Shown: in pieces, positions 3,535 to 28,148 of the stretch
Position numbering within the stretch: the stretch's first letter is position 1
Layout: each line of letters opens with the position of its first letter
Program-made: the position numbers and the translations under genes
DNA from: Rhizobiaceae bacterium
Lineage (GTDB): Bacteria > Pseudomonadota > Alphaproteobacteria > Rhizobiales > Rhizobiaceae
DNA length: 64,000 nucleotides
Reading direction: 5' to 3'
Assembly (NCBI GenBank): GCA_019635795.1
Contig: JAHBYV010000003.1
Span: forward strand, 62,001 to 126,000
The notes under the pieces: generated by a model
The model's database searches: none
Told to the model about the DNA's origin: nothing
The model's input: only the letters and a program-made list of their open reading frames with translations

Positions 3535-3535
3535 G

Positions 3536-6175: not shown

Positions 6176-8461
6176 TCAGGCCGTGGCTGGTGGATCAAAT
6201 GCCCGAACCGGTGGCAATTCCCCCTCAAAGCGCTCAATCCTCACCGTCGTAAGCTGCCCTGTACACCCTTGAGCGAGGGATGAAGTGCCCACATCGCGCG
6301 TCAACACATTGGGGTTGCCGTGCACACACACGGGTGCGTCACCGGTCGGTTCGTAGGGATCATACCATGCGCCTGTCGAGAGGTTCAGCACACCCGGCCT
6401 GACCGCGTCGCTCACCTTTACCGCTGCAAGACATGCCCCTCGGTCATTGTAGAGCCGAACAATGTCTCCGTCCGAAAGACCTAGCCGTGCAGCGTCCTCC
6501 GTACTCACGCGCACCGGCTCGCGTCCGTGAATTTTCCCTTCAACACTGAAGTTCCCAAAATCCAGCTGGCTATGAAGCCTGCGGGAAGGCTGGTTGGAAA
6601 CCAGAACAAACTCGCCGGTTTCACGCGGCAAGTCGCTATGCTCAAACCATTTCGGATGTGCGCCACAATCGGCGTATCCGAATGAGCCAATCTTGTCTGA
6701 GTAAATCTCGATCTTGCCGGATGGCGTAGGTAATGGCGAGCCAACAGGATCGGCTCTGAAAGACCGCAGGATACCGCCATCGTCCGGTTCTTGAGGCAGA
6801 TCGATTTCCCCGCGTTCCCAGAACGCATCAAAGTCAGGAATCTCGTGCCCAGTGGTCTTCAGCGAGTCTTCCAGGGAACCATACATATGGCGCAACCACT
6901 CTTCCGCAGTTCGCCCCTCCGTGAAGGATTGCGCCGCACCCAGCCGCTCGGCAAGGCTTGCGAAGATGGAATAATCGTCGCGCGAAAGCTCATATGGTTC
7001 CATCAGCTTGTGCATTGCCAGAAGCACCGGATCGGTTGGACCGCCCGCAATGTCATTGCGTTCGACCGTCATGGTCGCCGGCAGGACAATATCGGCATGG
7101 CGCGCCATCGGCGTCCACGCCGTCTCGTGCACAACAATCGTTTCCACACGGTCAAACGCCGCCCGAAGCCTGTTTAAATCCTGATGGTGATGGAACGGGT
7201 TTCCTCCGATCCAATAGACGAGACGAATGTTCGGATAGGTCAGCGTCTGGCCGTCGTAGGAAAATTTCCCGCCGGGATTGAGAAGCATGTCGGAAATACG
7301 CGCAACCGGAATAAAGTCGCGCACGGCGTTGGTGCCTTGGGGCAGGGCGGGCAGCGAAACACCGGTCTGGCGGCGTCCGTAGTGAGCGAGTGAACCCAGC
7401 CCATAATTATAACCTCCACCGGGAAGTCCAAACTGCCCAAGCATCGCGGCCAGAACCGCTGCCATCCAGACTGGTTGTTCGCCATACTCTGCACGTTGAA
7501 GTGCCTGGGCGGTAACGATCAGGGTGCGACGACCGACGAGACTCCTCGCCAGAGTCTCGATCAACTCAGCGTTCAAACCGGTTATCCGGGATGCCCACGC
7601 CGGCATCTTTGGCACACCGTCCACCTGCCCGAGCAGATACGGTTCAAACTTTTCGTAGCCTTCGCAATATCTCTCAAGAAAGGCCTTGTCGTGCAGTCCC
7701 TCAGTGGCCAGCACATATGCCATGGCGAGCATCAGGGCGGTATCCGTGCCGGGCCGCAGCGCCACCCATTCAGCCCCGGCTTCTTGCGGTAGGTCGTCCT
7801 TCAGCGGGCTCACCAGAATGAAGCGTACGCCGCGCTTGCGCGCAGCGTCCATGGCTCCACGCTCGATATGCGCGCTGATTCCGCCTGACGCGACAGCGGT
7901 GTTCTTCAGCGGCATTCCACCGAAAGCCATCACCACATCTGTGTGCTGTTCAATCTGCTCCCAAGTAACATTGCGACGCGCGACGGCCTCCATGGGGCCC
8001 ATAATGTGCGGAAGCAGGACGAGTGCGGCACCGGCGCTGTAATTGTTCACCGAACGGACGTATCCACCCAGCGCGTGGTTCAGGAAGCGATGCAGCTGGC
8101 TTTGTGCATGGTGAAAACGGCCTGCGGACGCCCAGCCATATGAACCACCGAAAACAGCTTGAGGGCCATGTTCATTTTTTACCCGCGCAAGCTCCGCGGC
8201 AAGAATATCCAACACCTCGTCCCAGGGTAGCGAAACAAAGTCATTGCCGGACCTGCGTGTCGCAACCCCATGCTTGTTAAGCCACCCCTTGCGAACGACA
8301 GGGCGCGCAATCCTGGCAGGATTGCGGGCGGCGTTTTCAAGATTCCTGAGTATTCCCGAAGGATCGGGGTCGCCCGCTCGGGGCGACACGGAAAGTCGAT
8401 CGCCATCTACGGAGGCCGTGAACGCTCCCCAATGAGAGCTGTGGAAACGCCTGTCGTTCAT
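6176..8461 (-). CDS. Molybdopterin oxidoreductase of the BisC/TorZ (biotin sulfoxide/TMAO reductase) type
   Basis: A 761-residue DMSO-reductase-superfamily enzyme binding bis-MGD. It starts at HSSHWGAFTASV, lacks the N-terminal Cys cluster for 4Fe-4S, and has the Ser molybdenum ligand in GGSYGW (S107), all features of the biotin-sulfoxide/TMAO reductase branch. There is no twin-arginine signal, so it is probably cytoplasmic like BisC. The ATG follows a GGAGG and lies 15 bases after the TPR gene, making it the last gene of the leftward catabolic operon. S- or N-oxide reduction is inferred from family; its part in the pathway is unknown. Confidence 0.85.
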   Translation of the reverse strand: MNDRRFHSSHWGAFTASVDGDRLSVSPRAGDPDPSGILRNLENAARNPARIARPVVRKGWLNKHGVATRRSGNDFVSLPWDEVLDILAAELARVKNEHGPQAVFGGSYGWASAGRFHHAQSQLHRFLNHALGGYVRSVNNYSAGAALVLLPHIMGPMEAVARRNVTWEQIEQHTDVVMAFGGMPLKNTAVASGGISAHIERGAMDAARKRGVRFILVSPLKDDLPQEAGAEWVALRPGTDTALMLAMAYVLATEGLHDKAFLERYCEGYEKFEPYLLGQVDGVPKMPAWASRITGLNAELIETLARSLVGRRTLIVTAQALQRAEYGEQPVWMAAVLAAMLGQFGLPGGGYNYGLGSLAHYGRRQTGVSLPALPQGTNAVRDFIPVARISDMLLNPGGKFSYDGQTLTYPNIRLVYWIGGNPFHHHQDLNRLRAAFDRVETIVVHETAWTPMARHADIVLPATMTVERNDIAGGPTDPVLLAMHKLMEPYELSRDDYSIFASLAERLGAAQSFTEGRTAEEWLRHMYGSLEDSLKTTGHEIPDFDAFWERGEIDLPQEPDDGGILRSFRADPVGSPLPTPSGKIEIYSDKIGSFGYADCGAHPKWFEHSDLPRETGEFVLVSNQPSRRLHSQLDFGNFSVEGKIHGREPVRVSTEDAARLGLSDGDIVRLYNDRGACLAAVKVSDAVRPGVLNLSTGAWYDPYEPTGDAPVCVHGNPNVLTRDVGTSSLAQGCTGQLTTVRIERFEGELPPVRAFDPPATA

Positions 8462-8476
8462 GAGCCTCCGTTGGCG

Positions 8477-9874
8477 CTAACCTGCAACAATCAGTGATGC
8501 AGCTCTTGATCGCGCCTCAATCGCTTCTTCATCCCGCCCGAGATTGTGAAGTATTTCACCGTAGTTCTTCCAGGACCAGCTTGAATGCACCTTGTAAGCA
8601 AGCCGCTCGGCAAACAAGGCGCGCGCCTTGAGTATGTCCTGGCTGGCCTTCGTGACATCAAGCAGGATCATATGGAAAACGTCGCGCTGTGCACGGCTTC
8701 CGCCGATACGATCCAGCGTGTAACGGACTGGCTCCATGAGCCGGGCAGCCTCTTTATAGTTTCCTTCCCGCGCGAGCTTCAGCCCTTTTGCGAGCGCCAG
8801 ACCTGACTCTGCGCAAATCTGTGCCTGCGTGCCGTTCAGAGTTGACCACTGCTGTATATTCGCAATCATGCGGTCTGCAGCATCCTTATCTCCCGCAGCA
8901 ACGAGCGCCATCAGATAATGGAGCGAAACGAATATGAGGTCGGTATCCTCAACGTGCTTGCGCGCCACTTCCACGAGCTTCGACCACCTGTCTCCGATGT
9001 CCACGCCGAACATTTCCAGACGCCACAGGAGTGAAGATGCGTTGCAAATATCGAGGTAAAAGTCCGACTTGATGTCAGACACGATCTGCTGATCGTAAAG
9101 CTCAAGCACCACATCAAACTCGCCGCGTTCGAGGTGGTAGAGGCAACGGTGCCAATAAAGGTGGAACCGGAAATTGTTGACGGTGGACCAGTCTTGCTCC
9201 AGCCCGTTTACCCAGGCGATCCCCTCTTCCATGCGTTCCGTCATTTCGAGCACATGCGCAACAGAATGCACTGACCAGGCGTCGGCGGGATTGCGGGCGA
9301 CGGCCTCGCGACCATAGTGCTCGGCCTTCGCATATTCGCCAGACTCTTCGAGTCCGAAAGCATACATGCCGAGGAGGAAGCCATAATCGCGATGGTTTGG
9401 TGACCACAATGGAAGAATCCTTGCGATCGAATCTCTCATCCTGCGCGGATCGCCTGAATAGAAATGCGTGAAATGCGAAAGCCGCAATGCCAGTCCGTCC
9501 ATAGGATCGTCCAGCAAAATACCTTCCCAAAGCTCGGTCGTCTTTTCGAGGTCACCATCGCACCAGGCGGCAAGCGCGGCAGCGTGCTGCTTCTCGCGCT
9601 CATTCGCGCCAACCTTTCGAACGAGGTTTTCCAGATCGCCTGAAATCACCTTTGCGCGGGCGGATTGATTGGTGCTGCCAAATAGCTTGGCGAGATAACC
9701 ACGCGCGCACAAAGCCATCGGCATATCAGGATCGGCCTCGGCAAGATTCTTGACAATCTCGCCGGTGTTTCGACGAAATCCCATATAGGACGAGGTGAAG
9801 TCAGAAAACTGACTGGCGCTTTCGGCTGAACTTGCCGTAAACTTCAAACCGTCTGCGTTCTCGAACTGGGCCAT
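8477..9874 (-). CDS. Tetratricopeptide-repeat protein (TTC38-like)
   Basis: A 465-residue, mostly helical protein with repeated TPR-like pairs (for example MALCARGYLAKLFGS, ESGEYAKAEHYGREA, AWSVHSVAHVLEM), resembling the TTC38 family. The start is the ATG at 9874 preceded by AAGGAA; the frame is open further upstream but that part lies in the acyl-CoA dehydrogenase gene. There is no signal peptide. It sits between the acyl-CoA dehydrogenase and the molybdoenzyme and may scaffold or assemble one of them; this is inference from position. No enzymatic motif is visible. Confidence 0.75.
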   Translation of the reverse strand: MAQFENADGLKFTASSAESASQFSDFTSSYMGFRRNTGEIVKNLAEADPDMPMALCARGYLAKLFGSTNQSARAKVISGDLENLVRKVGANEREKQHAAALAAWCDGDLEKTTELWEGILLDDPMDGLALRLSHFTHFYSGDPRRMRDSIARILPLWSPNHRDYGFLLGMYAFGLEESGEYAKAEHYGREAVARNPADAWSVHSVAHVLEMTERMEEGIAWVNGLEQDWSTVNNFRFHLYWHRCLYHLERGEFDVVLELYDQQIVSDIKSDFYLDICNASSLLWRLEMFGVDIGDRWSKLVEVARKHVEDTDLIFVSLHYLMALVAAGDKDAADRMIANIQQWSTLNGTQAQICAESGLALAKGLKLAREGNYKEAARLMEPVRYTLDRIGGSRAQRDVFHMILLDVTKASQDILKARALFAERLAYKVHSSWSWKNYGEILHNLGRDEEAIEARSRAASLIVAG

Positions 9875-9905: not shown

Positions 9906-11144
9906 TCAACCAGCCGCGCTCGAACGATTACGCGACGCGTCGGATGCTGCTTGCCGCGCATAACCATCGCGCGTCTGCGGCACCTTGATCCCGAGGATTG
10001 TCGATGCGACCTGCGTTCGCAGGATCTGCGCCGTGCCACCTGCAATGGTAAACATGCGCGCATCGCGCATTGCGCGCTCCAGCGGAAGATTCCGTGAGTA
10101 CCCCATTGCCCCATGTATCTGCAGAGCGTTGCTGGTAACGCTCAAAGCAGTCTCAGAGGCGAGGATCTTTGCTTGCGCTGCAGCACACATATCCGGGAAC
10201 CCGTCCACGAGATTGGAGGCTGCGCTGCGCAACAGTGCGCGCGAGGCGTTGAGTCCGATAGACATGTCAGCAAGCATCCATTGCAGACCCTGGAATTCGG
10301 CTATAGGGCGGCCAAATTGTTCGCGTTCCAGCGCATAAGCCACAGCATGTTCGAAGGCACCCTGTGCAATTCCCAAAGCCACGGTCCCGGCACCGACACG
10401 CTGTGCATTGTAGGCCCGCATAAGGCCGGCAAAGCCGCGCTCAATACCTTCCGGCGGAACGACGATCATATCTTCAGAGATTTCCATGTCCTCGAAGATC
10501 ATTTCGGTTTCGGGAATCCCGCGCAAACCCATCGCCGGTTCGCGTTTGCCGACGATCAGGCCGGGGGTCTTGTCGCGCTGCGCGATAAATCCCGCGATGC
10601 CGCGCGGCGTGCCGTCCTCGATAAGACGTGCAAACACGAGGTGAAGCTTGGAAACGCCGCCACCGGTAATCCAGTGCTTCTTGCCATTGATAATGTACTT
10701 GTCCCCGCGCTTGACGGCGGTCGTGGTCATCTCGGTCGCTGCACTGCCAGCGCCCGGCTCTGTGATACAAATCGCAGGCTTGTCACCGGAAAGCACGAGG
10801 TCTGCCGCGAGGCGCTTTTGCTTTTCCGAACCGTAGCGCATGATCGCGCCAACCGCGCCCATATTTGCTTCGACGGTTATGCGCCCCATCGCGCCGCAGC
10901 AGCGCGCCATTTCCTCAATGACCGTTACAGCCGCGAGGTAGGACCAACCCTTGCCACCATACTCGGTCGGAAGGGTCATGCCCATGAAGCCAGCTTTGCA
11001 AAGCTTGTCGATATTGTCCCAGGGATATTGTTCCGAGCTATCGACATCGGCAGCACGCGGACGAAACTCGCGCTCCGCAAGCTCGCGGGCGCTGGCAGCG
11101 ATTTCGATCAGGTTTTCAGTTTCTTGCCTCATGGCCTGCGTCAA
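9906..11144 (-). CDS. Acyl-CoA dehydrogenase family flavoprotein
   Basis: A 412-residue acyl-CoA dehydrogenase with the usual helical N-domain, middle beta domain (ITEPGAGSAATEM about 128-139, with the WIT motif near 158) and C-terminal helices (EREQFGRPIAEFQ about 273-285). It would oxidise or reduce an acyl-CoA at the alpha-beta bond using FAD. By eye, the usual catalytic Glu sites are not Glu: the MCAD-type position reads IAGGT (G369) and the isovaleryl-CoA-type position reads NAQRV (Q248). The start overlaps the CoA-transferase stop by 4 bases, so the two are coupled and probably act on the same acid. Confidence 0.85.
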   Translation of the reverse strand: MTQAMRQETENLIEIAASARELAEREFRPRAADVDSSEQYPWDNIDKLCKAGFMGMTLPTEYGGKGWSYLAAVTVIEEMARCCGAMGRITVEANMGAVGAIMRYGSEKQKRLAADLVLSGDKPAICITEPGAGSAATEMTTTAVKRGDKYIINGKKHWITGGGVSKLHLVFARLIEDGTPRGIAGFIAQRDKTPGLIVGKREPAMGLRGIPETEMIFEDMEISEDMIVVPPEGIERGFAGLMRAYNAQRVGAGTVALGIAQGAFEHAVAYALEREQFGRPIAEFQGLQWMLADMSIGLNASRALLRSAASNLVDGFPDMCAAAQAKILASETALSVTSNALQIHGAMGYSRNLPLERAMRDARMFTIAGGTAQILRTQVASTILGIKVPQTRDGYARQAASDASRNRSSAAG

Positions 11145-12367
11145 TCCTCAATCTTTGCGAGTTCACCGGGTTGGAGCCCGAACTCCTGCAGAACTTCCTG
11201 AGTGTGCTCTCCGCAACGCGGCGGATGGCGACGGTAACTAACCGGTGTGCGGCTGAACTTGATCGGGTTGCCAATAAGGTTGACCTGACCGGAACCCGCC
11301 GCCGGATGGGGAATCGAAATCTTCATTTCCCGTGCTGCGACCTGATCGGAAGAGAACACCTCTTCCAGATTGTTAATCGGGCCGCCGGGCACGCCAGCAG
11401 CTTCCATCGCCGCAACAAGCGTTGATTTGTCTATCTGGCGCAGCGTCATTGCGATGTCCGCAACCAGTTCTTCCCGATGCTCTATCCTTGAACCGTTGGT
11501 GCTGTAGCGCGGGTCAGAAGCCAGATCATTGCGTGATATAGCCTTGCAGAAGGCACGGTACTGCGAGTCATTTCCAACGGCGACAACGACATGACCATCC
11601 GCCGTTTCAAAAACCTGATACGGCACGATATTGGGATGCTGATTGCCCAGGCGCCTCGGCAATTTGCCTGATGCGAGATAATTGGTGCCAGCGTTAACCA
11701 GCCAGGACACCTGCGAATCCACGAGGGCCAGGTCAATGTGCTGTCCTTCACCGGTTTGATCCCGGTGCCTGATTGCAGCAAGGATCGCAACAGTCGCGTA
11801 AAGACCGCAAATGACATCCGCGACCCCGACCCCAACCTTCATCGGCTCGCCTTCAGGTTCACCCGTGATGCTCATGATCCCGCCGAAGGCTTGCGCCAGC
11901 AGATCATAGCCGGGTCTGTGCGCGTTTGGTCCGGTCTGGCCAAACCCGGTTATCGAGCAATAAACGAGGTCTGGCTTGAGCTTGCTCAGGCTCTCATAGT
12001 CCAGTCCGTACTTCTTGAGCCCGCCAACTTTGAAATTTTCAACCACCACGTCGCACGACAACAGAAGTTCGCGAACCTTCTCCGCGTCTTGCGGCTTTGC
12101 AATGTCCAGCGCTACCGATCGCTTGTTGCGATTTGCGGAAAGGTAGTATGCACTTTCGCGCGTAGGGTTTCCTTGCACATCAACCACATAGGGCGGCCCC
12201 CAGGTTCGGGTATCATCGCCCTCGCCCGGCCGCTCAATCTTGATTACATCGGCCCCCATGTCGCCAAGCAACTGCGTGCAGGTGGGGCCTGCAAGGATTC
12301 TTGAAAGGTCCAGAATCCGCAGGCCCGACAGGGCGCCGCCCGACCTTTGAGAGTTAATCGCGCTCAT
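11141..12367 (-). CDS. CaiB/BaiF (class III) CoA-transferase
   Basis: A 408-residue family III CoA-transferase that moves CoA from an acyl-CoA donor to a carboxylic acid. The N-terminus GLRILDLSRILAGPTCTQLLGDMGADVIKIE is typical. The catalytic Asp is in GYDLLAQA near residue 160. Starts and stops overlap by 4 bases with the dehydrogenase downstream and the transketolase subunit upstream. It implies that the pathway passes through a CoA thioester. The acid substrate cannot be read from sequence. Confidence 0.87.
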   Translation of the reverse strand: MSAINSQRSGGALSGLRILDLSRILAGPTCTQLLGDMGADVIKIERPGEGDDTRTWGPPYVVDVQGNPTRESAYYLSANRNKRSVALDIAKPQDAEKVRELLLSCDVVVENFKVGGLKKYGLDYESLSKLKPDLVYCSITGFGQTGPNAHRPGYDLLAQAFGGIMSITGEPEGEPMKVGVGVADVICGLYATVAILAAIRHRDQTGEGQHIDLALVDSQVSWLVNAGTNYLASGKLPRRLGNQHPNIVPYQVFETADGHVVVAVGNDSQYRAFCKAISRNDLASDPRYSTNGSRIEHREELVADIAMTLRQIDKSTLVAAMEAAGVPGGPINNLEEVFSSDQVAAREMKISIPHPAAGSGQVNLIGNPIKFSRTPVSYRRHPPRCGEHTQEVLQEFGLQPGELAKIED

Positions 12368-13371
12368 GCTTGCTTTCCCTTGCCCGCCCGCATCTCGGCG
12401 CGCAAACAGGCGTCAACAATCGCTTCGGCTGAAAGGCCGTATTTCTGGAACAGATATGCTGTTGTTCCGCCCTCGGCGAAAACGTCCCTTATGCCAACTC
12501 TTTCGACCACGGCCCCAAGGCCAGCTTCCGCTACGGCTTCACAAACAGCTGAGCCGAGCCCGCCAATGATCGAATGATTTTCCGCCGCGATTACCAGTCG
12601 GCGGTCCCGCACCAGCGACGTCACGAATTCCACATCGAGCGGCTTGATCGTATGAATATTCGCGACCGCGGCTGATATCCCTTTTTCCTGCAAGAGCTCA
12701 GCGGCCTGCACTGCCAGCGAAACCATCATGCCACTCGCGAAAATGACAGCATCATTGCCATCGCGCACAAGCTGACCTTTTCCGATCTCGAATTGACGCG
12801 GCTTCTGTGTCTGGATCGGCTGCAAATCAGCCCGTCTCAGCCTCAGATAAACCGGACCATTCATCTTCGCTGCTGCAAAGAGAGATGCACGCAGCTCATC
12901 CGCGTCAGCCGGTTCAATAATGGTCATATTCGGCAATGCACGCATCAATGCCACATCATCAATGGCCTGGTGCGAGACGCCAAGCAGCGTCGTCAAACCC
13001 GGCAGGAAACCGGCAAGCTTCACGTTGGTTCGCGGATACGCCACTTGCATCGCAACCTGATCGTAAGCACGCCGCGTCAGAAAAACGGAGAAGGAATGAA
13101 CCACGGGTATGCCGCCGCTGCGCGCGATGCCGCCGGCAGCGCCGATCATATTCGCCTCGGCAATGCCGAAGTTCAAAAAGCGTTCGGGAATCTGGTCGCG
13201 GAAAAGGTTAGCCTCGGTCGCGGGCGTCAAATCGCCGGACAGGCAGAACACGTCAGGGTTTTGTTGCCCCAACTCAACCAGTGCCTCGCCATATATCGGA
13301 CCTTGCACGACAGGTGCCGTCACCGCAGATGTGGCGAAATCACGATCGATATTTTCAACGCTGTTCATCAC
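12364..13371 (-). CDS. Transketolase-like, C-terminal subunit (Pyr + C-terminal domains)
   Basis: A 335-residue protein matching the pyrimidine-binding and C-terminal domains of transketolase, with GDLTPATEANLF, the FLNFGIAEANMIGAAGGIA segment carrying the TPP-activating Glu, and a C-terminal HTIKPLD. The other half is the adjacent gene, overlapping by 4 bases, so the enzyme is a two-subunit transketolase. Split transketolases often serve specialised sugar catabolism (apulose-phosphate or sulfofructose enzymes are known examples). The particular donor and acceptor here are unknown. Confidence 0.85.
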   Translation of the reverse strand: MMNSVENIDRDFATSAVTAPVVQGPIYGEALVELGQQNPDVFCLSGDLTPATEANLFRDQIPERFLNFGIAEANMIGAAGGIARSGGIPVVHSFSVFLTRRAYDQVAMQVAYPRTNVKLAGFLPGLTTLLGVSHQAIDDVALMRALPNMTIIEPADADELRASLFAAAKMNGPVYLRLRRADLQPIQTQKPRQFEIGKGQLVRDGNDAVIFASGMMVSLAVQAAELLQEKGISAAVANIHTIKPLDVEFVTSLVRDRRLVIAAENHSIIGGLGSAVCEAVAEAGLGAVVERVGIRDVFAEGGTTAYLFQKYGLSAEAIVDACLRAEMRAGKGKQA

Positions 13372-14195
13372 GCAAGCTCTCTCAAGGCGCTTTCGGCCAA
13401 TTCCGGCGACATCCGCATAAAATGGCTGAGCTGGCCTTCGATTGCAGACACACCCTTCCCCGGAACCGTGCGCGCTATAATCACGGCAGGTTTATCCTTG
13501 ACGGAACGCGCCGCCTCGAATGCGCCAAGTATTTCCGGTATTGAATGGCCATCGATTTCCAGAACCGACCATCCGAAAGCTCGCCACTTGTCAGCAACCG
13601 GGGCCATCTTCATGGCGTTGTCGGTGTGGCCTTCCACCTGCATGTGGTTGAGATCAACCACAACGCAGAGATTATCCAGCTTGTAGTTGGCCGCAGACAT
13701 TGCAGCTTCCCAAACCTGCCCTTCCTGCATCTCGCCATCGCCGAGCATGACATAGCACCGATGTGAAAGGCCGCGTCTTTTTGCGTAGACTGCTGTGCCG
13801 ACTGCTACGGACATACCCTGCCCCAGCGATCCGGAAGTCGATTCAACGAGCGGCCCAAGTCTTTCCGACACGTTGATTTCGAGGGTTGAGCCGTCCTTGC
13901 AATAAGTCTCCAGCGCACTGCGCTCGATCAGGCCGCGCACCGCAAGCGTTGCATGAAATGCAGCCGAATTGTGCGCAGTTGACAGGAAGAACCGGTCTCG
14001 CCCCTGCCAGGAAGGATCCGCGGGATCGAGCCGCATCTCTGCGAAGTAGATTGCCGCGAAGAGGTCGGCAGCACCAAGGCCCTGTGCAACATACCCTTGC
14101 CCCTGCAGCGCAATCATCCTCACAACCTCGAGGCGAATGTCGCGGGCATAGCGCTGAATGTCAGCAACATTGTGCAGTCGGCCTGCGCTGCTCAT
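13368..14195 (-). CDS. Transketolase-like, N-terminal (TPP-binding) subunit
   Basis: A 275-residue N-terminal half of transketolase. The TPP/Mg motif is GDGEMQEGQVWEAAMSAA near residue 150, and DRFFLSTAHNSAAFHATL and SLGQGMSVAVG match the family. ATG at 14195. The C-terminal half follows with a 4-base overlap. No frameshift links the two, so the split is genuine. It transfers a C2 ketol unit by family; the substrate is unknown. Confidence 0.85.
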   Translation of the reverse strand: MSSAGRLHNVADIQRYARDIRLEVVRMIALQGQGYVAQGLGAADLFAAIYFAEMRLDPADPSWQGRDRFFLSTAHNSAAFHATLAVRGLIERSALETYCKDGSTLEINVSERLGPLVESTSGSLGQGMSVAVGTAVYAKRRGLSHRCYVMLGDGEMQEGQVWEAAMSAANYKLDNLCVVVDLNHMQVEGHTDNAMKMAPVADKWRAFGWSVLEIDGHSIPEILGAFEAARSVKDKPAVIIARTVPGKGVSAIEGQLSHFMRMSPELAESALRELA

Positions 14196-14231: not shown

Positions 14232-14768
14232 CTAGCGGATGATGCCGTCTACATATGCAGCGCCGATACCCACTTTTTCGTAGTGCTCGCGCGCCTGTTC
14301 AATCTTCGTGTGAACATCGTCATATCCGGCGAGTTCCCCTTCCGGCCCCAGATAGATCATCGCGCCATTCACCTGAAAAAGCGTGATCATCTCATCAACC
14401 CCGTCACCCATAACCAGTGTGTGGGTTTCGCCCGGCGGCTCATAGACATAGCCACCCTCGGTAGCGATCCAGTCATGTTCCAGATAGCGCCAGGTTCCCT
14501 TGATTACGTATCCGTGCACCGGCTGGGGGTGGCGGTGCCGTGACAGGATACCGGCCTTCTTCGACCGCAAAAGCGTGACCCAATATCCGCGACTTGCGCA
14601 CAGCAGGAGGGGACGAATCCAGAGATTCGGCTCTTGCGGAATCCAGAGACGATCATCCAGCGGAACCGCGTCGGGGATCACCACCTCGCGAGCTGCGTCG
14701 ATCGGTCCGAAATTAAGCGGCTGCAAACCCAGCTTCTTTTTGAATGCGGCCTCAGACGCGTTTGTCAT
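14232..14768 (-). CDS. Cupin dioxygenase, Dke1 / 2,4'-dihydroxyacetophenone dioxygenase-like
   Basis: A 178-residue single-domain cupin. Three candidate iron ligands fit the three-His pattern of acetylacetone dioxygenase (Dke1) and 2,4'-dihydroxyacetophenone dioxygenase: H78 and H80 in SRHRHPQ and H116 in PGETHTL. Those enzymes cleave a C-C bond next to a carbonyl with O2. The second ATG (14768) is chosen because it sits about 10 bases after AAGGAGGA; the first ATG (14777) abuts that sequence. Substrate unknown; the enzyme class is an inference from fold and ligands. Confidence 0.7.
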   Translation of the reverse strand: MTNASEAAFKKKLGLQPLNFGPIDAAREVVIPDAVPLDDRLWIPQEPNLWIRPLLLCASRGYWVTLLRSKKAGILSRHRHPQPVHGYVIKGTWRYLEHDWIATEGGYVYEPPGETHTLVMGDGVDEMITLFQVNGAMIYLGPEGELAGYDDVHTKIEQAREHYEKVGIGAAYVDGIIR

Positions 14769-14795
14769 GGGTTCCATTCCTCCTTACGGGTACGA

Positions 14796-15320: not shown

Positions 15321-15342
15321 GGGTTGTCTCTCCCGATGGCTC

Positions 15343-19580: not shown

Positions 19581-19608
19581 TGTGTGGCAAGCCCTCTTCC
19601 GATTTTCA

Positions 19609-19642
19609 GTGTACTGTATACCGAATATCGATTCATTGGCAA
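19609..19642 (-). promoter_or_regulatory. Promoter with overlapping putative GntR operator, before the dehydratase operon
   Basis: Read on the minus strand there is TTGCCA (19642-19637), a 16-base spacer, and TATACA (19620-19615). The motif CGATATTCGGTATACA spans the spacer end and the -10; the same motif with two changes occupies the same place in the tctC promoter. The extension GTATACAGTACAC (19621-19609) recurs with one change before the AhpD-like gene. Repression by the adjacent GntR protein is inferred. Confidence 0.6.
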
Positions 19643-19694
19643 GCGCGGAAAAAAGAAATATTCTGTAGTCGGGTCGACTCGCGATCACGTGGGG

Positions 19695-20345
19695 ATGGAA
19701 AGAAAAATGCAGAAGATAGAGAAAAGATCGTCGGCGGAAGTGGTTGCCGACCGGTTGCGGGAGGCAATCGTTTTGGGTGACCTGAGGATGGGTTCCGTCC
19801 TCTCCGAGTCAGAGCTTGGAGACAGACTTGGCGTAAGCCGGACCCCCGTTCGGGAAGCTTTTCGGCAGTTGAGTCAAGAAGGTTTGATCGAGATCACACC
19901 TTACAGGGGCGCATCGGTTTTCAGCCTGAGTGACAATGAACTGGTTCAGGTCATCGATTTTCGTGAGCTGATCGAGTGCAAGGCGCTTGATATGGCAATG
20001 CGGGAAAACGCGGAGGTGCTGACAAAGGCGATGTCCGCCGTCATCGACCGTATGAGCGAGGCAGTAAAGGCAGGCGATGTGAGATCGTACCTTGCTGAAG
20101 ATGCCGAGTTCCACCTTACGATCGTGCGGTCTGCTGGAAACGCATATCTGCTGGGTGCAAATAATTTGATTGCTTCCAAGATGGCAGCTATCCGCACCGT
20201 GCTGGGCGGCGACAGGGATATGTTCTCCGGTTCGTGGAAGACTCACAAGGAGATATTCGCACTCATCAAGAAGCACGATATCGAAGGCGCGAACGCCAGG
20301 CTGCGCAAGCACATTCTGGATGGCAAGGCGCTATTCGCGCCCTGA
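19695..20345 (+). CDS. GntR-family (FadR/FCD type) transcriptional regulator
   Basis: A 216-residue regulator with an N-terminal winged helix (LREAIVLGDLRMGSVLSESELGDRLGVSRTPVREAFRQL) and a C-terminal FCD ligand-binding domain that often binds small carboxylates through a metal (D/E-x-H-x pattern, here EDAEFHLTI). It lies between the two catabolic operons, divergent from the dehydratase gene and convergent with the aldehyde dehydrogenase, so it probably controls both. The start may be ATG 19695 or 19707; the latter has GGAAAGA upstream. Frames further upstream overlap the promoter. Confidence 0.88.
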   Translation: MERKMQKIEKRSSAEVVADRLREAIVLGDLRMGSVLSESELGDRLGVSRTPVREAFRQLSQEGLIEITPYRGASVFSLSDNELVQVIDFRELIECKALDMAMRENAEVLTKAMSAVIDRMSEAVKAGDVRSYLAEDAEFHLTIVRSAGNAYLLGANNLIASKMAAIRTVLGGDRDMFSGSWKTHKEIFALIKKHDIEGANARLRKHILDGKALFAP

Positions 20346-22703: not shown

Positions 22704-23393
22704 TCAGGCATCAACCACACTGGTGTTCTGCTCGATAAAGGCCGCGATTTCCGGCTTCAGGATCATGCCAGCGTCCAGATCTTTTTCGAAGGCTTGCTCC
22801 AGCGCCAGCAATTGCGGAAGCTTTTCCGAAAGTTCTGAAGCCCTGTCCGGCGAAACAATGACCACCCCATCAGGATCGCCGAAAACCATGTCGCCCTGAT
22901 TCACGATCACGCCGCCGATGGAAATCGGGAACCCTATGGCTGCAGGCGCTGCACGACTTGGCGCATTCGGGGAAACCCCGCGGCAATAGATGGGAACGGG
23001 CACCGGTCTCATTCCAACTGAATCGCGGATAAGGCCGTCCGTCACTATTGCTGCTATGCCGCGATTGCGCGCCATCATCAGCATCAGGTCGCCCATCAAC
23101 CCTGTGCCTGTGTAGTTGGTTGTTGAAATAACCAGCACATCGCCTGGCTTCGCGTTATGGATCGCAGCATATACGCCGAGATTATCTCCGGGCGATGCTT
23201 TGACGGTCAGCGCCGGTCCCAGATAGCCGGTCTTTTGCCCTGCTTGCCCGGCGAGCGGCTTGATTGTGTAATCAAGCGCGGTCTTTAGACCAAGGGCGTC
23301 CAGAACCTGAGCAACACCGGCACCAGCAAAGGCGTCGGTATTCACCCCCTCGGGACGATAAAGGTTTGAACTCAGCGTTATCAGCGGTGCCAT
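22704..23393 (-). CDS. RraA-like / 4-hydroxy-4-methyl-2-oxoglutarate aldolase-family protein
   Basis: A 229-residue member of the RraA fold, with AGVAQVLDALG near the start, PGDNLGVYAAIHNAKPGDVLVI, AAIVTDGLIRDSVGM and the C-terminal GDPDGVVIV. Some members are divalent-metal HMG/CHA aldolases cleaving 4-hydroxy-4-methyl-2-oxoglutarate or oxaloacetate to pyruvate; RraA itself inhibits RNase E. The catabolic setting favours the aldolase/decarboxylase role. The start is ATG 23393, four bases after the upstream stop; the longer frame would lie inside the reductase gene. Confidence 0.78.
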   Translation of the reverse strand: MAPLITLSSNLYRPEGVNTDAFAGAGVAQVLDALGLKTALDYTIKPLAGQAGQKTGYLGPALTVKASPGDNLGVYAAIHNAKPGDVLVISTTNYTGTGLMGDLMLMMARNRGIAAIVTDGLIRDSVGMRPVPVPIYCRGVSPNAPSRAAPAAIGFPISIGGVIVNQGDMVFGDPDGVVIVSPDRASELSEKLPQLLALEQAFEKDLDAGMILKPEIAAFIEQNTSVVDA

Positions 23394-24339: not shown

Positions 24340-25851
24340 CTACTCTCCCTGCGGTTTGATCGACCGCCGTGTTCCAATTAGGTTTCGCACCAGACTGAAA
24401 ATCTGGAAGCTCCACAAAATACCTACGCAGACCGCCAATGCCGTCGCTGTTGGCCGTGTCAAAAGTCCGAATGGGTCACCGCCATACTTCTGGAGCGACG
24501 CCACGAAATATTGCTCAAGCGGCCTACCGAGAATGAAGCCCAGAACAACCGGTCCAAGCGGGATCTTGTTGGATTCAAGGATCCAGCCAAGAATGCCGAA
24601 AACCACCATTACCCAAATACCAAAGCTGTCATTGTCTGCCGCATATGCCCCGACAACACAGACTGTCAGGATCATCGGTACAATCGCATAGCGCGGCACC
24701 TGCATCAGAAGGTTCATTGCACGCACACACATCCAGGCCATCGGCAGAAGCAGGATGTTTGCGAGGATGAAGATGATGAAGATGGCGAATACTTCCGGCC
24801 CGCTTTCAGTGAATATTGAAGGTCCGGGCCGAATGCCCTGAACATAGAGAACACTGATCACCAGCGCCGTGAGTGTATCGCCCGGAATGCCGAATACCAG
24901 TGCAGGCACCCACGCACCGCCAAGCGCAGCGTTGTTGGCGGCAGAAGCATTCGCCACGCCCTGCAAACGCCACTCTGTGGTTTCCGGCTTGAGCTTGGTA
25001 AAGCGACGCGAAAGACCGTATGTAATCCAGGCGGCAACGTCCGAACCCGCGCCCGGAACAACACCTATGACTGCACCAAGATTGGAGCTGGCCAGAATTC
25101 CGCGCTTGTAGCGCCACACATCCGCTATGCTGTCCAGGAACAGTCGCCCTTTGACTTTGACGATGCGCGCGGCATTGTCGGCGACAGGGCGCGCCATCTT
25201 GATGAGTTCGGGAACCGCGAAGAGTCCGATCAGCGCAGGAATCAGCGGAATGCCGCCCAGCAACTCCGTATACCCGCCGGTGAATCGCGGAACGCCGCCC
25301 TCAACGCTGAGACCAACCGTGCCCAATCCAAGCCCAATGAAAACCGCTATAGCGCTGCGGATTGTTGAGCCGCCACCGATCAGCGTCGTGCAGCTAAGCC
25401 CTAGCAGCGTCAGCCAGAAATATTCATCGCTCGAAAAGTAGAACGCAACTTCTGCCAATGTCGGGGCGATCAGCATGAGATAGATCGCGCCCAGAATGCC
25501 GCCAAAAGCGCTGACTATAATGCCAACACCCAGTGCCCGGTGCGCTTTGCCTTCAAGGCCAAGTGTGTAGGAGTCCATCGTATAGGCGGCAGATGCTGGC
25601 GTACCCGGAACACGCATTAGAGCGCCTGGAATATCGCCTGCGGTCATGGCCATGGCCGATGCGGACACCATTGCAGCGGCTGCCGCAACAGGGCTCATGT
25701 AGAATGTGAACGGAAGGATGAGAGCCAGCGCCATGAGGGCGGTGAGGCCCGGTATTGCTCCCATTACAATTCCGAGAAAACTCGACGCGATAACGGTAAG
25801 CAGTACCTCACTGGTGAAGACCAGTCCGACTGCTGCGACAAGGGTTTCCAC
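24340..25851 (-). CDS. tctA: Tripartite tricarboxylate transporter, large membrane subunit TctA
   Basis: A 503-residue TctA-family protein with about twelve membrane segments and the family signature GIVMGAIPGLTALMALALILPFTF near residue 28, repeated as GAVIGVVPGAGSDVAAW near residue 262. It forms the secondary-transport pathway of a TTT system, together with the small TctB and the periplasmic TctC. TTT systems import citrate, other carboxylates or aromatic acids using ion gradients. It follows tctB by 30 bases. Confidence 0.9.
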   Translation of the reverse strand: METLVAAVGLVFTSEVLLTVIASSFLGIVMGAIPGLTALMALALILPFTFYMSPVAAAAAMVSASAMAMTAGDIPGALMRVPGTPASAAYTMDSYTLGLEGKAHRALGVGIIVSAFGGILGAIYLMLIAPTLAEVAFYFSSDEYFWLTLLGLSCTTLIGGGSTIRSAIAVFIGLGLGTVGLSVEGGVPRFTGGYTELLGGIPLIPALIGLFAVPELIKMARPVADNAARIVKVKGRLFLDSIADVWRYKRGILASSNLGAVIGVVPGAGSDVAAWITYGLSRRFTKLKPETTEWRLQGVANASAANNAALGGAWVPALVFGIPGDTLTALVISVLYVQGIRPGPSIFTESGPEVFAIFIIFILANILLLPMAWMCVRAMNLLMQVPRYAIVPMILTVCVVGAYAADNDSFGIWVMVVFGILGWILESNKIPLGPVVLGFILGRPLEQYFVASLQKYGGDPFGLLTRPTATALAVCVGILWSFQIFSLVRNLIGTRRSIKPQGE

Positions 25852-25881: not shown

Positions 25882-26319
25882 TCAGGGCAGCGGAACCGCA
25901 AGGAGCGTTTTGAATACGACGTAGACCACGGCAACAACCAGTACGCCGGTTACAATCGAAGCGATGATGCGCCGTGATTGCAGATAGGCCAGCGCAACCG
26001 CGACAGCACCGCAGCTTTCGATAAATCCTAGAACATCAAAAGACAGGGCAAGCAGGATAAGCACCCCGATCAGGGCGACTCCTGTCATGAACTCCGACAT
26101 TCCCATATTGGCCGAGGCATCTTCATCGGCAACCGGCTGCGCTGTTTTGCGAAAGGTTCCGATCAGGAGCAAAAGCCCACAAACCATGACCCCGGCAGCA
26201 AGGAGCGAAGGGAACGTACCCGGATCAACGGGCGAGAACATGGATTTCGGATATGAGCGCGCAGTGTAGAAGGCCATCGCGCCGGCGCAGATCAGGGCAA
26301 TGGGAAATACTCGCTCCAT
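25882..26319 (-). CDS. tctB: Tripartite tricarboxylate transporter, small membrane subunit TctB
   Basis: A 145-residue protein with four hydrophobic segments (starting FPIALICAGAMAFYTARSYP, ending VVAVVYVVFKTLLAVPLP), as in TctB. It lies between tctC and tctA, in the usual TTT gene order. Its exact role in the transporter is poorly defined. Confidence 0.85.
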   Translation of the reverse strand: MERVFPIALICAGAMAFYTARSYPKSMFSPVDPGTFPSLLAAGVMVCGLLLLIGTFRKTAQPVADEDASANMGMSEFMTGVALIGVLILLALSFDVLGFIESCGAVAVALAYLQSRRIIASIVTGVLVVAVVYVVFKTLLAVPLP

Positions 26320-26344: not shown

Positions 26345-26370
26345 GCCGTCTCCCCGGACAGGGAGACGGC
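26345..26370 (-). other. Intercistronic hairpin between tctC and tctB
   Basis: GCCGTCTCCC and GGGAGACGGC form a perfect 10-bp stem with a 6-base loop just after the tctC stop. On the transcribed strand no U-run follows, so full termination is unlikely. Such structures commonly protect the upstream message, giving more binding protein than membrane subunits; that role is inferred. Confidence 0.6.
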
Positions 26371-26382
26371 ATCGTGTCGAGT

Positions 26383-27357
26383 TTATTTTACAACGCCAAT
26401 CTGCTTGAGAGCTTCGCCAGCAGCAGCTTCTGACTTGTCGACAAATGCCTCAATCTGGTCTTGCGGCACTGTGAACACATCGAAGCCCTGAGCCGACATC
26501 AATTGCTTGAACTGGTCCGTCGCATAGGCCTCGGCAAAAGCCGTACGCATTTTCTCCAGCACCGCAGGATCGGTGTTCTTGGGCGCTGCTACACCGCGCC
26601 AAACGCCGAACTGCCAATCAACATCCAGCGCTTCCTTGGCGGTTGGCAGGTCTGGCATCGCAGATGCCTTTTCCTGACCCAGTACAAGCAGAGGACGAAC
26701 CTTGCCCGAACGCATCAGCGCATCGGCTTCAGCGAGAGCGGCCAGCGAGAAATCAACAGCGCCAGCTGCAAGTTCCTGAACGCCGTTGACGGCACCCGTG
26801 CCGGTTACAGTCGGAACTTCCGCAGGATTAATGCCATAGGCCGCAGCAATACCGACAAAGCTGATGTGGTAGCTGTTGCCGATTGAGCTGCCGATATGCA
26901 GTTTGTACTTCTTCGGATCTGCCTTGATCGCGTCAAACGCTTCCTTGGCGGTCTTGAACGGCGAATCTTCTGCCACCATCAATGTCGGGAACGCCATATT
27001 ATAGATACCGACCATCGCAACGTCACGATAGGTCAGCGTGGTCTGGCCGAACCACTTGAATGTGCTCAGATCGGCCGATGTCACGCCGATCACGCTGCCA
27101 TCCGCCTTTGCGTTGACCAGAGCTTCCAGGCCAACAATACCACCGCCACCGGTGCGGTTTACAACGTTGAATGGCTGGTTGAGCTTTTCCTGAAATACCT
27201 GAGCCAGAAAGCGAGCAGTCGCGTCTGTACCACCGCCTGCAGCGTAAGGAACAATAACCTCAACAGGACCGCTCGGCCAATCCGCAGCCTTCGCCGCACC
27301 TGACAGCCCCACTGCCAATGTAATAGCGCCCAAAAGCGCCTTGCATCCACGTAGCAT
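26383..27357 (-). CDS. tctC: Tripartite tricarboxylate transporter, periplasmic binding protein TctC
   Basis: A 324-residue TctC/Bug-family binding protein. The signal peptide MLRGCKALLGAITLAVGLSG... ends near AKA|ADW. The mature part has VEVIVPYAAGGGTDATAR and VNRTGGGGIVGLEAL, hallmarks of the family. ATG 27357 is preceded by GGGAGG; the longer frame overlaps the promoter. It captures the carboxylate in the periplasm and is the first gene of a seven-gene operon, controlled by a promoter whose -10 lies inside a putative operator. Confidence 0.9.
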   Translation of the reverse strand: MLRGCKALLGAITLAVGLSGAAKAADWPSGPVEVIVPYAAGGGTDATARFLAQVFQEKLNQPFNVVNRTGGGGIVGLEALVNAKADGSVIGVTSADLSTFKWFGQTTLTYRDVAMVGIYNMAFPTLMVAEDSPFKTAKEAFDAIKADPKKYKLHIGSSIGNSYHISFVGIAAAYGINPAEVPTVTGTGAVNGVQELAAGAVDFSLAALAEADALMRSGKVRPLLVLGQEKASAMPDLPTAKEALDVDWQFGVWRGVAAPKNTDPAVLEKMRTAFAEAYATDQFKQLMSAQGFDVFTVPQDQIEAFVDKSEAAAGEALKQIGVVK

Positions 27358-27385
27358 CTGAATCCTCCCAACTTGGATAGGGAGA

Positions 27386-27413
27386 TGTATACCGCATTTC
27401 GTATGCAAGTCAA
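27386..27413 (-). promoter_or_regulatory. tctC promoter with overlapping putative GntR operator
   Basis: On the minus strand TTGACT (27413-27408), a 16-base spacer and TATACA (27391-27386) form a near-consensus sigma70 promoter. The implied start lies about 20 bases before the tctC ATG. The segment CGAAATGCGGTATACA overlaps the spacer and -10 and matches the dehydratase promoter at 14 of 16 positions. A repressor bound here would block polymerase. Confidence 0.65.
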
Positions 27414-27526
27414 TTCACCTTATGAGTGTTTCAGGTGCCCTATAACACAGGCGAAGCACTGGTGTTTAATTGACTCGATTTGATCACATTAAACATTGCT
27501 TGCTAAAATAATCGACCTGAGCTATT

Positions 27527-27539
27527 GTATGCAGTACAC
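27527..27539 (+). promoter_or_regulatory. Putative operator before the AhpD-like gene
   Basis: GTATGCAGTACAC matches GTATACAGTACAC of the dehydratase promoter at 12 of 13 positions. It sits inside an imperfect palindrome (ATTGT...ACAAT, 27524-27542), 28 bases before the gene start. A common regulator is inferred. Confidence 0.5.
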
Positions 27540-27566
27540 AATTACCAGAAAGATGAGGTGTATGAA

Positions 27567-28148
27567 ATGGAAGAGCTCAAAGCCGGTCGATTCCCCATTC
27601 CGGACCTCGCCGAAATGCCCGACGATATTCGAGAGCGAATTCTGGCGGTGAACGAAAAGTCCGGCTTTATCCCGAATGTGTTTCTTGTGCTGGCTTACAG
27701 GCCGGATGAGTTCAGAGCGTTCTTCGCTTACCACGACGCATTGATGGAACGGCCGGGTAATCTGAGCAAAGCCGAAAGGGAAATGATTGTCGTTGCGACT
27801 TCCAACGCAAATCAATGCCAGTATTGCGTGGTAGCCCATGGCGCTATTCTTCGCATTCGCGCCAAGGATCCTTACATCGCGGACCAGGTCGCAATAAACT
27901 ATCGCAAGGCAGACATCACCGAACGCCAGCGCGCAATGCTCGATTTCGCAATGAAGGTTTCGCAAAGTGCCTATGCGGTGAACGAAGATGATTTCCGCGC
28001 GCTTGGCGAATATGGATTCACGCAAGATGACTGCTGGGACATAGCCGCAATTTCTGCATTTTTCGGCATGTCAAATCGGCTGGCCAATGTAACCAACATG
28101 CGCCCCAACACCGAATTCTACTCCTTGGGCCGCTCCGCACAGACTTGA
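27567..28148 (+). CDS. Carboxymuconolactone decarboxylase/AhpD-family peroxidase-related protein
   Basis: A 193-residue AhpD-like helical protein with the redox motif CQYC followed by VVAHG (about residues 86-94). This motif supports peroxidase or disulfide activity in AhpD. ATG 27567 is preceded by GAGGTG; the upstream in-frame ATG lies in the operator region. It is transcribed away from tctC, and the similar operator suggests co-regulation with the catabolic operons. It may deal with peroxides or quinones formed by the pathway; that is inference. Confidence 0.8.
   Translation: MEELKAGRFPIPDLAEMPDDIRERILAVNEKSGFIPNVFLVLAYRPDEFRAFFAYHDALMERPGNLSKAEREMIVVATSNANQCQYCVVAHGAILRIRAKDPYIADQVAINYRKADITERQRAMLDFAMKVSQSAYAVNEDDFRALGEYGFTQDDCWDIAAISAFFGMSNRLANVTNMRPNTEFYSLGRSAQT

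What the first reader, a model, noticed from the sequence alone, without database searches (positions are those of the whole stretch)
6176..28148. Two-operon catabolic block of unassigned function around one GntR regulator
About 19 genes combine enzymes I cannot place in a known route: a GalD-type dehydratase, E1 alpha/beta with a free lipoyl protein, HpcH aldolase, VOC protein, Dke1-like cupin, split transketolase, CaiB CoA-transferase, acyl-CoA dehydrogenase, TPR protein and BisC-type molybdoenzyme. Beside it sit a TTT importer, 2-oxoacid reductase, RraA and FAH proteins and an aldehyde dehydrogenase. The gene content, tight overlaps and shared promoter motifs are seen. Known family chemistry suggests import of an organic acid, dehydration, C-C cleavage and oxidation through a lipoyl- and CoA-bound intermediate. 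The substrate and order are inference.
Basis: partly seen in the sequence, partly recalled or inferred. Interest (0 to 1): 0.75.

Follow-up and report, generated by a model that had tools for sequence, protein, structure and literature searches.

The report
Bacterial regulon for breaking down organosulfur acids
A bacterium carries a jointly controlled set of about 22 genes that probably imports a sulfur-containing organic acid and ends by cutting its carbon-sulfur bond to release sulfite; the last steps look like known enzymes, but the starting compound and the middle steps are not known.

Summary
The genes are real: 22 by my count, two minus-strand operons plus a GntR gene and a divergent peroxidase-like gene. 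The adjacent CaiB resembles CoA-transferases found beside desulfinases. So the route's end is probably sulfinate, CoA ester, then sulfite plus propionyl-CoA. Dehydratase relatives share their stretch with BisC S/N-oxide reductases in six of eight non-window loci; nearby are a PatB C-S lyase or a thiol dioxygenase, and two lie on plasmids with nif or nod genes. Near-identical sites lie upstream of both operons; one recurs between a related GntR and dehydratase elsewhere. I read the locus as an organosulfur-acid regulon: TTT import, S-oxide reduction, chain-shortening by dehydratase, TPP enzymes and aldolase, CoA transfer, desulfination. Against it: no known-type thiol dioxygenase was found in this genome; E1-lipoyl-aldolase genes form a block of their own elsewhere without sulfur marks; no fetched neighbourhood had the whole set. 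Substrate and order are inference. New variant of a known kind.

The parts
6176..8461 (-). BisC-type molybdopterin S/N-oxide reductase, 761 aa
   Evidence: TIGR00509 933.8 bits (subfamily cut-off 1017.55; next model 650.3), Pfam Molybdopterin
8477..9874 (-). TPR-repeat protein, 465 aa from the first likely ATG (longer frame to 10114)
   Evidence: weak TPR hits; 42-44% identical to three TPR proteins near desulfinase genes elsewhere, 31% to a fourth, 19-21% to two near dehydratase genes
9906..11144 (-). 3-sulfinopropanoyl-CoA desulfinase-group protein (ACAD fold)
   Evidence: NF042439 655.6 vs cut-off 600; best solved chain 5af7 529.6 bits, next 270.9; R88/Q248/G369
11141..12367 (-). family III (CaiB) CoA-transferase, likely Act-type
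   Evidence: PF02515; 56-69% to CaiB in six loci with a desulfinase
12364..13371 (-). transketolase C-terminal half
   Evidence: Pfam; best solved relative is a split transketolase chain 6yaj
13368..14195 (-). transketolase N-terminal half
   Evidence: Pfam
14232..14777 (-). Cupin_7 protein related to 2,4'-dihydroxyacetophenone dioxygenase
   Evidence: PF12973; 4p9g 137 bits; HRH and ETH patterns
14796..15374 (-). VOC (Glyoxalase_4) protein
   Evidence: PF13669; 11 of 249 genomes of the order, own included, match at 1e-10
15343..16125 (-). HpcH/HpaI-family aldolase
   Evidence: PF03328; 7v8t 112.8 bits
16160..16399 (-). free-standing lipoyl-domain protein, 79 aa, ETEK motif
   Evidence: PF00364, start codon, motif read in the sequence
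16407..17387 (-). 2-oxoacid dehydrogenase E1 beta-like
   Evidence: Pfam/NCBIfam
17400..18374 (-). 2-oxoacid dehydrogenase E1 alpha-like
   Evidence: Pfam/NCBIfam; E1a-E1b-lipoyl triad kept at 58-64% in four other genera
18396..19580 (-). enolase-superfamily (MR group) dehydratase-like protein
   Evidence: PF13378/PF02746; best solved 4e6m, 2gl5; active-site pattern
19581..19706 (.). divergent promoter region dehydratase/GntR with sites TGTATACCGAATATCG (19615-19630) and GTATACAGTACA (19610-19621, minus)
19707..20345 (+). GntR/FCD transcription regulator
   Evidence: PF00392 + PF07729; 45% to the GntR between BisC and dehydratase in L072
20358..21803 (-). aldehyde dehydrogenase
   Evidence: PF00171
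21825..22661 (-). fumarylacetoacetate-hydrolase-family protein
   Evidence: PF01557; NF053535 302 vs cut-off 500
22704..23393 (-). RraA-like protein (longer frame to 23516)
   Evidence: PF03737
23398..24336 (-). PanE/ApbA-like 2-oxoacid reductase
   Evidence: PF02558, TIGR00745 181.8 vs cut-off 141.35
24340..25851 (-). TctA, large permease of a TTT importer
   Evidence: 46% to a permease annotated as TTT
25882..26319 (-). TctB-like small membrane protein
   Evidence: position between TctA and TctC only
26383..27357 (-). TctC solute-binding protein
   Evidence: PF03401
27358..27566 (.). divergent promoter region TctC/CMD with sites TGTATACCGCATTTCG (27386-27401) and GTATGCAGTACA (27527-27538)
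   Evidence: 15 of 16 bases shared with the GntR/dehydratase intergenic stretch of L072, 0 of 400 shuffles as good
27567..28148 (+). peroxidase-related CMD (AhpD-like) protein with CQYC
   Evidence: TIGR01926 212.4 vs 81.8; 75% to the one between dehydratase and BisC in Sulfitobacter

Best explanation
The block is one regulon for an organosulfur carboxylic acid, most likely a thioether or S-oxide of a hydroxy acid. Steps: (1) the TTT importer takes it up; (2) the BisC-type enzyme reduces an S-oxide to the thioether; (3) the enolase-superfamily enzyme, HpcH aldolase, PanE/FAH/RraA/ALDH and the E1-lipoyl and split-transketolase TPP enzymes shorten or split the carbon chain, leaving a three-carbon sulfur acid, with the cupin the candidate for making the sulfinate; (4) the CaiB protein loads the sulfinate on CoA; (5) the desulfinase breaks the C-S bond to give sulfite and propionyl-CoA or a close analogue. 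The GntR protein binds sites upstream of both operons. Backed by family tests and neighbourhoods: the enzyme class of (5), the likely class of (4), the kinds of proteins in (1)-(3), the shared sites. Inferred: all substrates, the order, binding by the GntR protein, and everything inside (3).
For: Desulfinase equivalog above cut-off, closest solved chain 5af7 by a wide margin, R/Q/G residues in 44 of 44 other rows at 58% or more (43 distinct places) and in 0 of 11 rows under 37%. CaiB 56-69% to CaiB in loci with desulfinases; act and acdA have neighbouring locus numbers in Variovorax (PMC6370202, found passages). In Mesorhizobium loti NZP2037 the pair lies 3.5-9.5 kb from acyl-CoA carboxylase and methylmalonyl-CoA mutase genes and next to a putative sulfate exporter. 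Dehydratase clade (100/99 support): BisC in the held stretch in 7 of 8 rows, window included. Relatives with thiol dioxygenase (L067, outside that clade, and L071; PF05995 above cut-off), PatB C-S lyase (L222 above cut-off; L223 and L224 by annotation), sulfate-exporter homologues (L067, L071). The L071 thiol dioxygenase is 69% identical to the one in the Paraburkholderia cluster with PatB, CaiB and AcdA. TTT uptake of an organosulfur acid is shown for thiodipropionate (PMC8102459, abstract). Shared sites.
Against: No thiol dioxygenase of the CDO/Mdo type was found in this genome, by family or by protein, so the source of the sulfinate is open. In 15 fetched BisC loci of other alphaproteobacteria and the own second copy, six of them at 60-62%, no dehydratase match appeared, so BisC alone does not mark this route. 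E1a-E1b-lipoyl-HpcH in this order, with a GntR, VOC and CaiB match near, occurs in L061 (32-50% identity) without desulfinase, BisC or dehydratase match, which suggests a separate block. Cupin relatives sit beside SDRs and TTT, TRAP, MFS or sugar importers, with no sulfur mark that I recognised. The dehydratase/GntR stretch of the window and that of L072 are no more alike than shuffles (158 and 181 of 400 as good); only the TctC/CMD site recurs there. No fetched neighbourhood held the whole set.
Confidence: 0.55

Rival explanations
1. Two pathways under one regulator: a sugar-acid, hydroxy-acid or diketo-acid route (dehydratase, E1-lipoyl, HpcH, VOC, transketolase, cupin, FAH, RraA, ALDH) plus a separate sulfinate-CoA module (CaiB, desulfinase, TPR) that share only location and control.
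For: Modules separate in relatives: E1-lipoyl-HpcH with VOC, GntR and CaiB matches in L061 and E1-lipoyl without the rest in L057-L060; cupin with TTT or TRAP, RraA, GntR or SDR; 30 of 40 desulfinase neighbourhoods with neither a close CaiB nor a TPR match.
Against: Dehydratase and BisC, at opposite ends of operon A, travel together elsewhere, and two dehydratase loci carry thiol dioxygenases, linking both ends to sulfur; one motif lies before both operons.
Confidence: 0.23
2. The BisC enzyme reduces an N-oxide or N-hydroxy compound, and the desulfinase-group protein serves another substrate; the route is not mainly about sulfur.
For: The BisC family covers S- and N-oxides; amino-acid importers and FAD oxidoreductases sit beside relatives.
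Against: PatB C-S lyase and thiol dioxygenases in related loci; desulfinase equivalog with the group's residues.
Confidence: 0.1
3. One reading: sugar acid or beta-dicarbonyl acid, dehydration, C-C cleavage and oxidation by an ordinary acyl-CoA dehydrogenase.
For: Dehydratase fold, aldolase, FAH and RraA families.
Against: The ACAD lacks the catalytic glutamate at both usual places (places recalled) and sits in the desulfinase group.
Confidence: 0.07

Closest known systems
3-mercaptopropionate / 3,3'-thiodipropionate catabolism of Variovorax paradoxus TBEA6 and Advenella mimigardefordensis (Mdo, Act or SucCD, Acd)
   Same: family III CoA-transferase beside a desulfinase; TTT-type importer in the same regulon (in TBEA6 one TctC is needed for growth on thiodipropionate, PMC8102459 abstract)
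   Different: no CDO-type Mdo found in this genome; here there are also a dehydratase, E1-lipoyl, split transketolase, HpcH, VOC, cupin and BisC; no substrate was tested
Plasmid clusters of Sinorhizobium chiapasense (L222) and Methylobacterium nodulans (L223)
   Same: dehydratase at 63% and BisC at 59-60% in one block, TPR protein near
   Different: amino-acid ABC importer and MalY/PatB protein instead of TTT and CaiB-desulfinase; their dehydratase has N for H219 and C or S for D171
Sulfitobacter sp. THAF37 plasmid cluster (L225)
   Same: dehydratase 52%, CMD 75%, BisC 44%, GntR 37% in one block; a desulfinase on the same plasmid
   Different: TRAP importer and two-subunit CoA-transferase; no E1, lipoyl, HpcH, VOC or cupin match in the stretch
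   Same: E1a, E1b, lipoyl, HpcH in the window's order, with GntR, VOC and CaiB matches near
   Different: 32-50% identity; no dehydratase, BisC or desulfinase match in the 19.9 kb stretch
2,4'-dihydroxyacetophenone dioxygenase (cupin)
   Same: best solved relative, same HxH and ETH/GHT site in the alignment
   Different: no aromatic pathway gene recognised here; substrate unknown

Membership tests
3-sulfinopropanoyl-CoA desulfinase (Acd) | passes the NCBIfam equivalog cut-off | tested here: met
   655.6 vs 600 bits
3-sulfinopropanoyl-CoA desulfinase (Acd) | Arg84/Gln246 of 5af7 kept, catalytic Glu lost (meaning of the residues recalled) | tested here: met
   R88, Q248, G369; 44 of 44 other rows at 58% or more agree, 0 of 11 under 37%
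3-sulfinopropanoyl-CoA desulfinase (Acd) | releases sulfite from 3-sulfinopropionyl-CoA | not testable with these tools
   needs an enzyme assay
3-mercaptopropionate pathway | CDO-type 3-mercaptopropionate dioxygenase in the genome | tested here: not met
   no match by PF05995 or by a 198-aa thiol dioxygenase in G000, 99.28% complete
3-mercaptopropionate pathway | CoA-transferase next to the desulfinase | tested here: met
   CaiB and ACAD frames overlap by 4 bases with the TTG start
Act-type succinyl-CoA CoA-transferase | closest to CaiB proteins in loci with desulfinases | tested here: met
   56-69% in L013, L017, L153, L177, L182, L192 (7 kb off in L192); other CaiB matches seen 45% or less
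Succinate-glutarate CoA-transferase | NCBIfam equivalog cut-off | tested here: not met
   497.5 vs 750
D-galactonate dehydratase (GalD) | NCBIfam equivalog cut-off | tested here: not met
   208.8 vs 311
BisC-type S/N-oxide reductase | TIGR00509 subfamily cut-off | tested here: inconclusive
   933.8 vs 1017.55 over nearly the full model; next model TorA 650.3
2-oxoacid dehydrogenase complex | E2 acyltransferase and E3 encoded with E1 | tested here: not met
   only a 79-aa lipoyl domain among the 22 genes; the rest of the genome was not searched for E2 or E3
2,4'-dihydroxyacetophenone dioxygenase | sequence relation and histidine site | tested here: met
   137 bits to 4p9g; HRH and ETH
2,4'-dihydroxyacetophenone dioxygenase | cleaves an alpha-hydroxyketone with O2 | not testable with these tools
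   needs an assay

The most novel reading that the evidence does not exclude
A new route for organosulfur hydroxy acids in which the enolase-superfamily enzyme, not a PLP enzyme, splits or prepares the C-S part (beta-elimination of a thiol or sulfinate from a 3-thio-lactate-type acid after BisC has set the sulfur's oxidation state), and a non-CDO cupin or the elimination itself supplies the sulfinate for Act and the desulfinase. The amino-acid version with PatB, on rhizobial plasmids, would be its sister: there the same enzyme has Asn in place of His219 and Cys or Ser in place of Asp171.
Probability: 0.17. Interest if true: 0.8.

Novelty: new variant of a known kind. Interest (0 to 1): 0.5.

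Why it matters
It turns a block 'of unassigned function' into a testable sulfur hypothesis with a cheap read-out (sulfite or sulfate release). It links an uncharacterised dehydratase clade to S-oxide reductases and C-S cleavage, and shows that this clade, with BisC and a MalY/PatB-type protein, lies on plasmids of legume symbionts, one copy on a plasmid with nif genes. That suggests that such bacteria may use host sulfur compounds, a question growth tests could settle.

Tried and rejected
Thiol dioxygenase in the own genome: none by PF05995 or by protein. PF05995 is a weak model for these proteins (28.0 and 30.6 bits for two, no hit at 1e-5 for the Paraburkholderia one), so alone would not have been enough. 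PatB orthologue in the own genome: only a 26% match.

VOC protein as a probe for the whole cluster: the three relatives whose surroundings I fetched (L033, L034, L048) do not carry the set. Cupin as a probe: SDR, TTT, TRAP, MFS or sugar-importer neighbours. Transketolase as a probe: Variovorax and Rhizobium plasmids at 57-58%, no sulfur mark recognised; the Rhizobium record has no annotation.

Genomic island at tRNA-Gly 29847-29921: the right flank is kept in two genus mates and the left is not, but no exact repeat of 14 bases or more of the tRNA end was found in the window and no integrase was recognised there, so an island is not shown. Promoter scan: 9 sites against 5.3 expected.

Site tests against the reading: TTGTATRCAGTAYA with two mismatches has 22 hits in the genome, as many as the reversed control; GTATRCAGTAYA is not exact in L225, L071, L073, L066, L067 or L222-L224.

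Papers: searches listed no description of this gene set; the library lacks most subscription journals, so this is weak. One search was useless (the acronym BISC). Two J Bacteriol papers on the desulfinase and Act were not held; the roles of Arg84 and Gln246 and the identity of 5af7 with Advenella Acd are recalled. Mimosoid S-carboxyethylcysteine as the substrate for the plasmid clusters: a passage in PMC9658407 places it in over 60 Phyllodineae acacias, but calls the amino-acid pattern of a series that includes a segregate of A. angustissima distinct, which speaks against it for the Acaciella isolates; kept as an idea only. No structure prediction was run.

Full report
What is there. The frames at 6176-28148 match the named families. 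I count 13 genes in operon A, 7 in operon B, one GntR regulator and one peroxidase-related CMD protein. The genome (G000, 3.26 Mb, 30 contigs, 99.28% complete) comes unnamed; 109 genera of its family were sampled, and it looks like Rhizobiaceae by my own judgement (not a tool result).

The end of the route. The acyl-CoA-dehydrogenase-like protein scores 655.6 bits against NF042439, 3-sulfinopropanoyl-CoA desulfinase, cut-off 600; the next model scores 321.1 with a cut-off of 640. Its nearest solved chain is 5af7 at 529.6 bits, the next is 270.9. In the printed alignment, counted by me, Arg84 and Gln246 of 5af7 are kept; I recall these as that enzyme's special residues. Of the two places where I recall the catalytic glutamate of the superfamily, one is Gln and one is Gly. 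In a table over the loci then held, 44 of 44 other rows at 58% identity or more (43 distinct places) keep R/Q/G, and 0 of 11 rows under 37% do. In the class, 50 of 385 genomes, own included, have a match at 1e-120. I fetched 40 of the 50 non-own places. Close CaiB relatives (56-66%) lay in 4 of the 40 stretches, one of them 7 kb away (L192), and TPR relatives (38-45%) in 6 of 40; 30 show neither. In Mesorhizobium loti NZP2037 the pair (69% and 71%) lies next to a putative sulfate exporter, 3.5-9.5 kb from acyl-CoA carboxylase and methylmalonyl-CoA mutase genes. In Variovorax TBEA6 act and acdA have neighbouring locus numbers, and Mdo, Act and AcdA lead from 3-mercaptopropionate to propionyl-CoA and sulfite (PMC6370202, abstract and found passages; PMC5373536, found passages).

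The beginning of operon A. The dehydratase is not a galactonate dehydratase by the curated cut-off; its best solved relatives are 'putative dehydratases' and 'putative mandelate racemases'. Four further relatives came from elsewhere: L066, L222, L223 and L225 (52%); a fifth, L224, matches in three pieces with only a 216-base annotated frame, which suggests a broken gene, and has no BisC match in its stretch. Window, L066, L071-L073, L222, L223 and L225 form one clade (100/99, 19 rows; L225 is a long branch and was flagged as less sure). BisC lies in the held stretch in 7 of these 8, window included (all but L071). Counting the eight non-window loci with L224, it is 6 of 8. Outside the clade, among the 77 further loci plus L067 and L068, BisC was seen in L067 (46%) and weakly in L124 (22%). 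Stretch lengths differ, so absences are soft. The reverse does not hold: of 15 BisC stretches fetched from a BisC search (six at 60-62%, one of the 15 the own second copy), none showed a dehydratase match.

Sulfur marks around relatives. L071 (Pseudorhodoferax) and L067 (G321) carry a thiol dioxygenase (PF05995, 28.0 and 30.6 bits, cut-off 23), related CaiB (62%) and enoyl-CoA hydratase (39%) proteins, and PF03601-type putative sulfate exporters. The L071 dioxygenase is 69% identical to the protein annotated as cysteine dioxygenase in the Paraburkholderia phenoliruptrix symbiotic-plasmid cluster with MalY/PatB, CaiB and AcdA. L222 has a PatB-family C-S lyase above cut-off (413 vs 340); L223 and L224 have MalY/PatB by annotation, L073 by my reading of its frame. 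L222 has nifS at about 10 kb from its BisC gene and L224 has nodD2 at about 7 kb from its dehydratase; both isolates come from Acaciella angustissima by record.

Two versions of the dehydratase. Window, L071, L072 and L225 have KVDP and ELH; L066, L073, L222 and L223 have KLCP or KVSP and ELN. The second group is one sub-clade (100/100). L222 and L223 (annotation) and L073 (frames read by eye) have an amino-acid-type ABC importer and PatB-like protein in the stretch; G353, source of L066, has a PatB at 76% on another contig. The first group has TTT (window), TRAP (L072 by eye; L225 by annotation) or TctC-like matches at 22-26% (L071). I infer that the window's version acts on a hydroxy acid and the other on an amino-acid analogue.

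One regulon. TGTATACCGMATWTCG is exact only at 19615 and 27386 in the whole genome; at two mismatches there are 5 hits, as many as for the reversed control. Between the two intergenic stretches 5 of 400 shuffled pairs reached 14 of 16. A second site near 27523-27538 shares 15 of 16 bases with the GntR/dehydratase intergenic stretch of L072, whose GntR is 45% identical; 0 of 400 shuffles did as well. The window's own dehydratase/GntR stretch and that of L072 are not more alike than shuffles (158 of 400 at 16 bases, 181 of 400 at 12). The 12-base core GTATRCAGTAYA is exact at 19610, 27527 and L072:2506, and once in 1.09 Mb of 60 other held loci; it is not exact in L225, L071, L073, L066, L067 or L222-L224. 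The longer TTGTATRCAGTAYA is exact once in the genome, and at two mismatches equals its control (22 and 22). All patterns were made after seeing the sites.

The unexplained middle. E1 alpha, E1 beta and the lipoyl protein stay together at 58-64% in four other genera (L057-L060), beside TRAP importers, ligases and hydrolases as I read the frames. In L061 (G310) the order E1a-E1b-lipoyl-HpcH recurs at 32-50%, with GntR, VOC and CaiB matches near and no dehydratase, BisC or desulfinase match: this favours a block of its own. No E2 or E3 is in the window's block. The cupin's kin lie beside SDRs and TTT, TRAP, MFS or sugar importers, and once behind a transketolase pair and a TTT importer (L032). 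The own genome showed no CDO-type thiol dioxygenase, so the sulfinate may come from the cupin, from an elimination, or from outside. This is the weakest link.

Accessory nature. Both genus mates lack the cupin at 0.001 and the dehydratase at 1e-60. To the right of tRNA-Gly the gene order is kept in both; in the 15 kb to the left it is not. None of the neighbourhoods fetched held the whole set; most genomes were searched with one protein only, so a full set elsewhere is not excluded.

Verdict. The end of the route is probably a desulfination (I put about 0.8 on the enzyme class); a sulfur acid as the regulon's substrate is my best reading (0.55); the substrate itself and the order are open. The pieces are known kinds; the combination is a new variant.

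Noticed in passing
window 1462-6161: TonB receptor plus BtuF-, BtuC- and BtuD-like genes (named by reading the translations) end 15 bases from the BisC gene; B12 uptake would suit a B12-dependent mutase for propionyl-CoA, but this is only position.
   Followed up: no
window 28342-29667: A gene in a low-GC stretch (0.469 for 28001-30000) with an HEIGH motif (ImmA-like by eye) between the CMD gene and tRNA-Gly.
   Followed up: no
window 29847-29921 and left of it; L217, L218: tRNA-Gly marks a break in gene order between this genome and two genus mates; no exact repeat of its end of 14 bases or more found in the window.
   Followed up: partly
L137 and L129: An Oscillospiraceae and a Eubacteriales contig with seven and five dehydratase-family matches within 21 kb and 15 kb; function of such arrays unknown.
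   Followed up: no
L224 12001-13118: Sinorhizobium mexicanum: the dehydratase matches in three pieces and no BisC match is in the stretch, while much of the rest of the L222 cluster is kept.
   Followed up: partly
L159, L164, L174, L175, L178, L185: A TPR-repeat protein (38-45% to the window's) recurs near desulfinase genes; its role is unknown.
   Followed up: partly
L159 and L164: Betaine-type ABC importer (L159) and acyl-CoA-carboxylase-like genes (both), named by eye, near the desulfinase, hinting at sulfonium or betaine substrates there.
   Followed up: no
window 27567-28148 and 16160-16399: An AhpD-like CxxC protein and a free lipoyl protein in one regulon recall the lipoyl-AhpD relay (recalled); not tested.
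   Followed up: no
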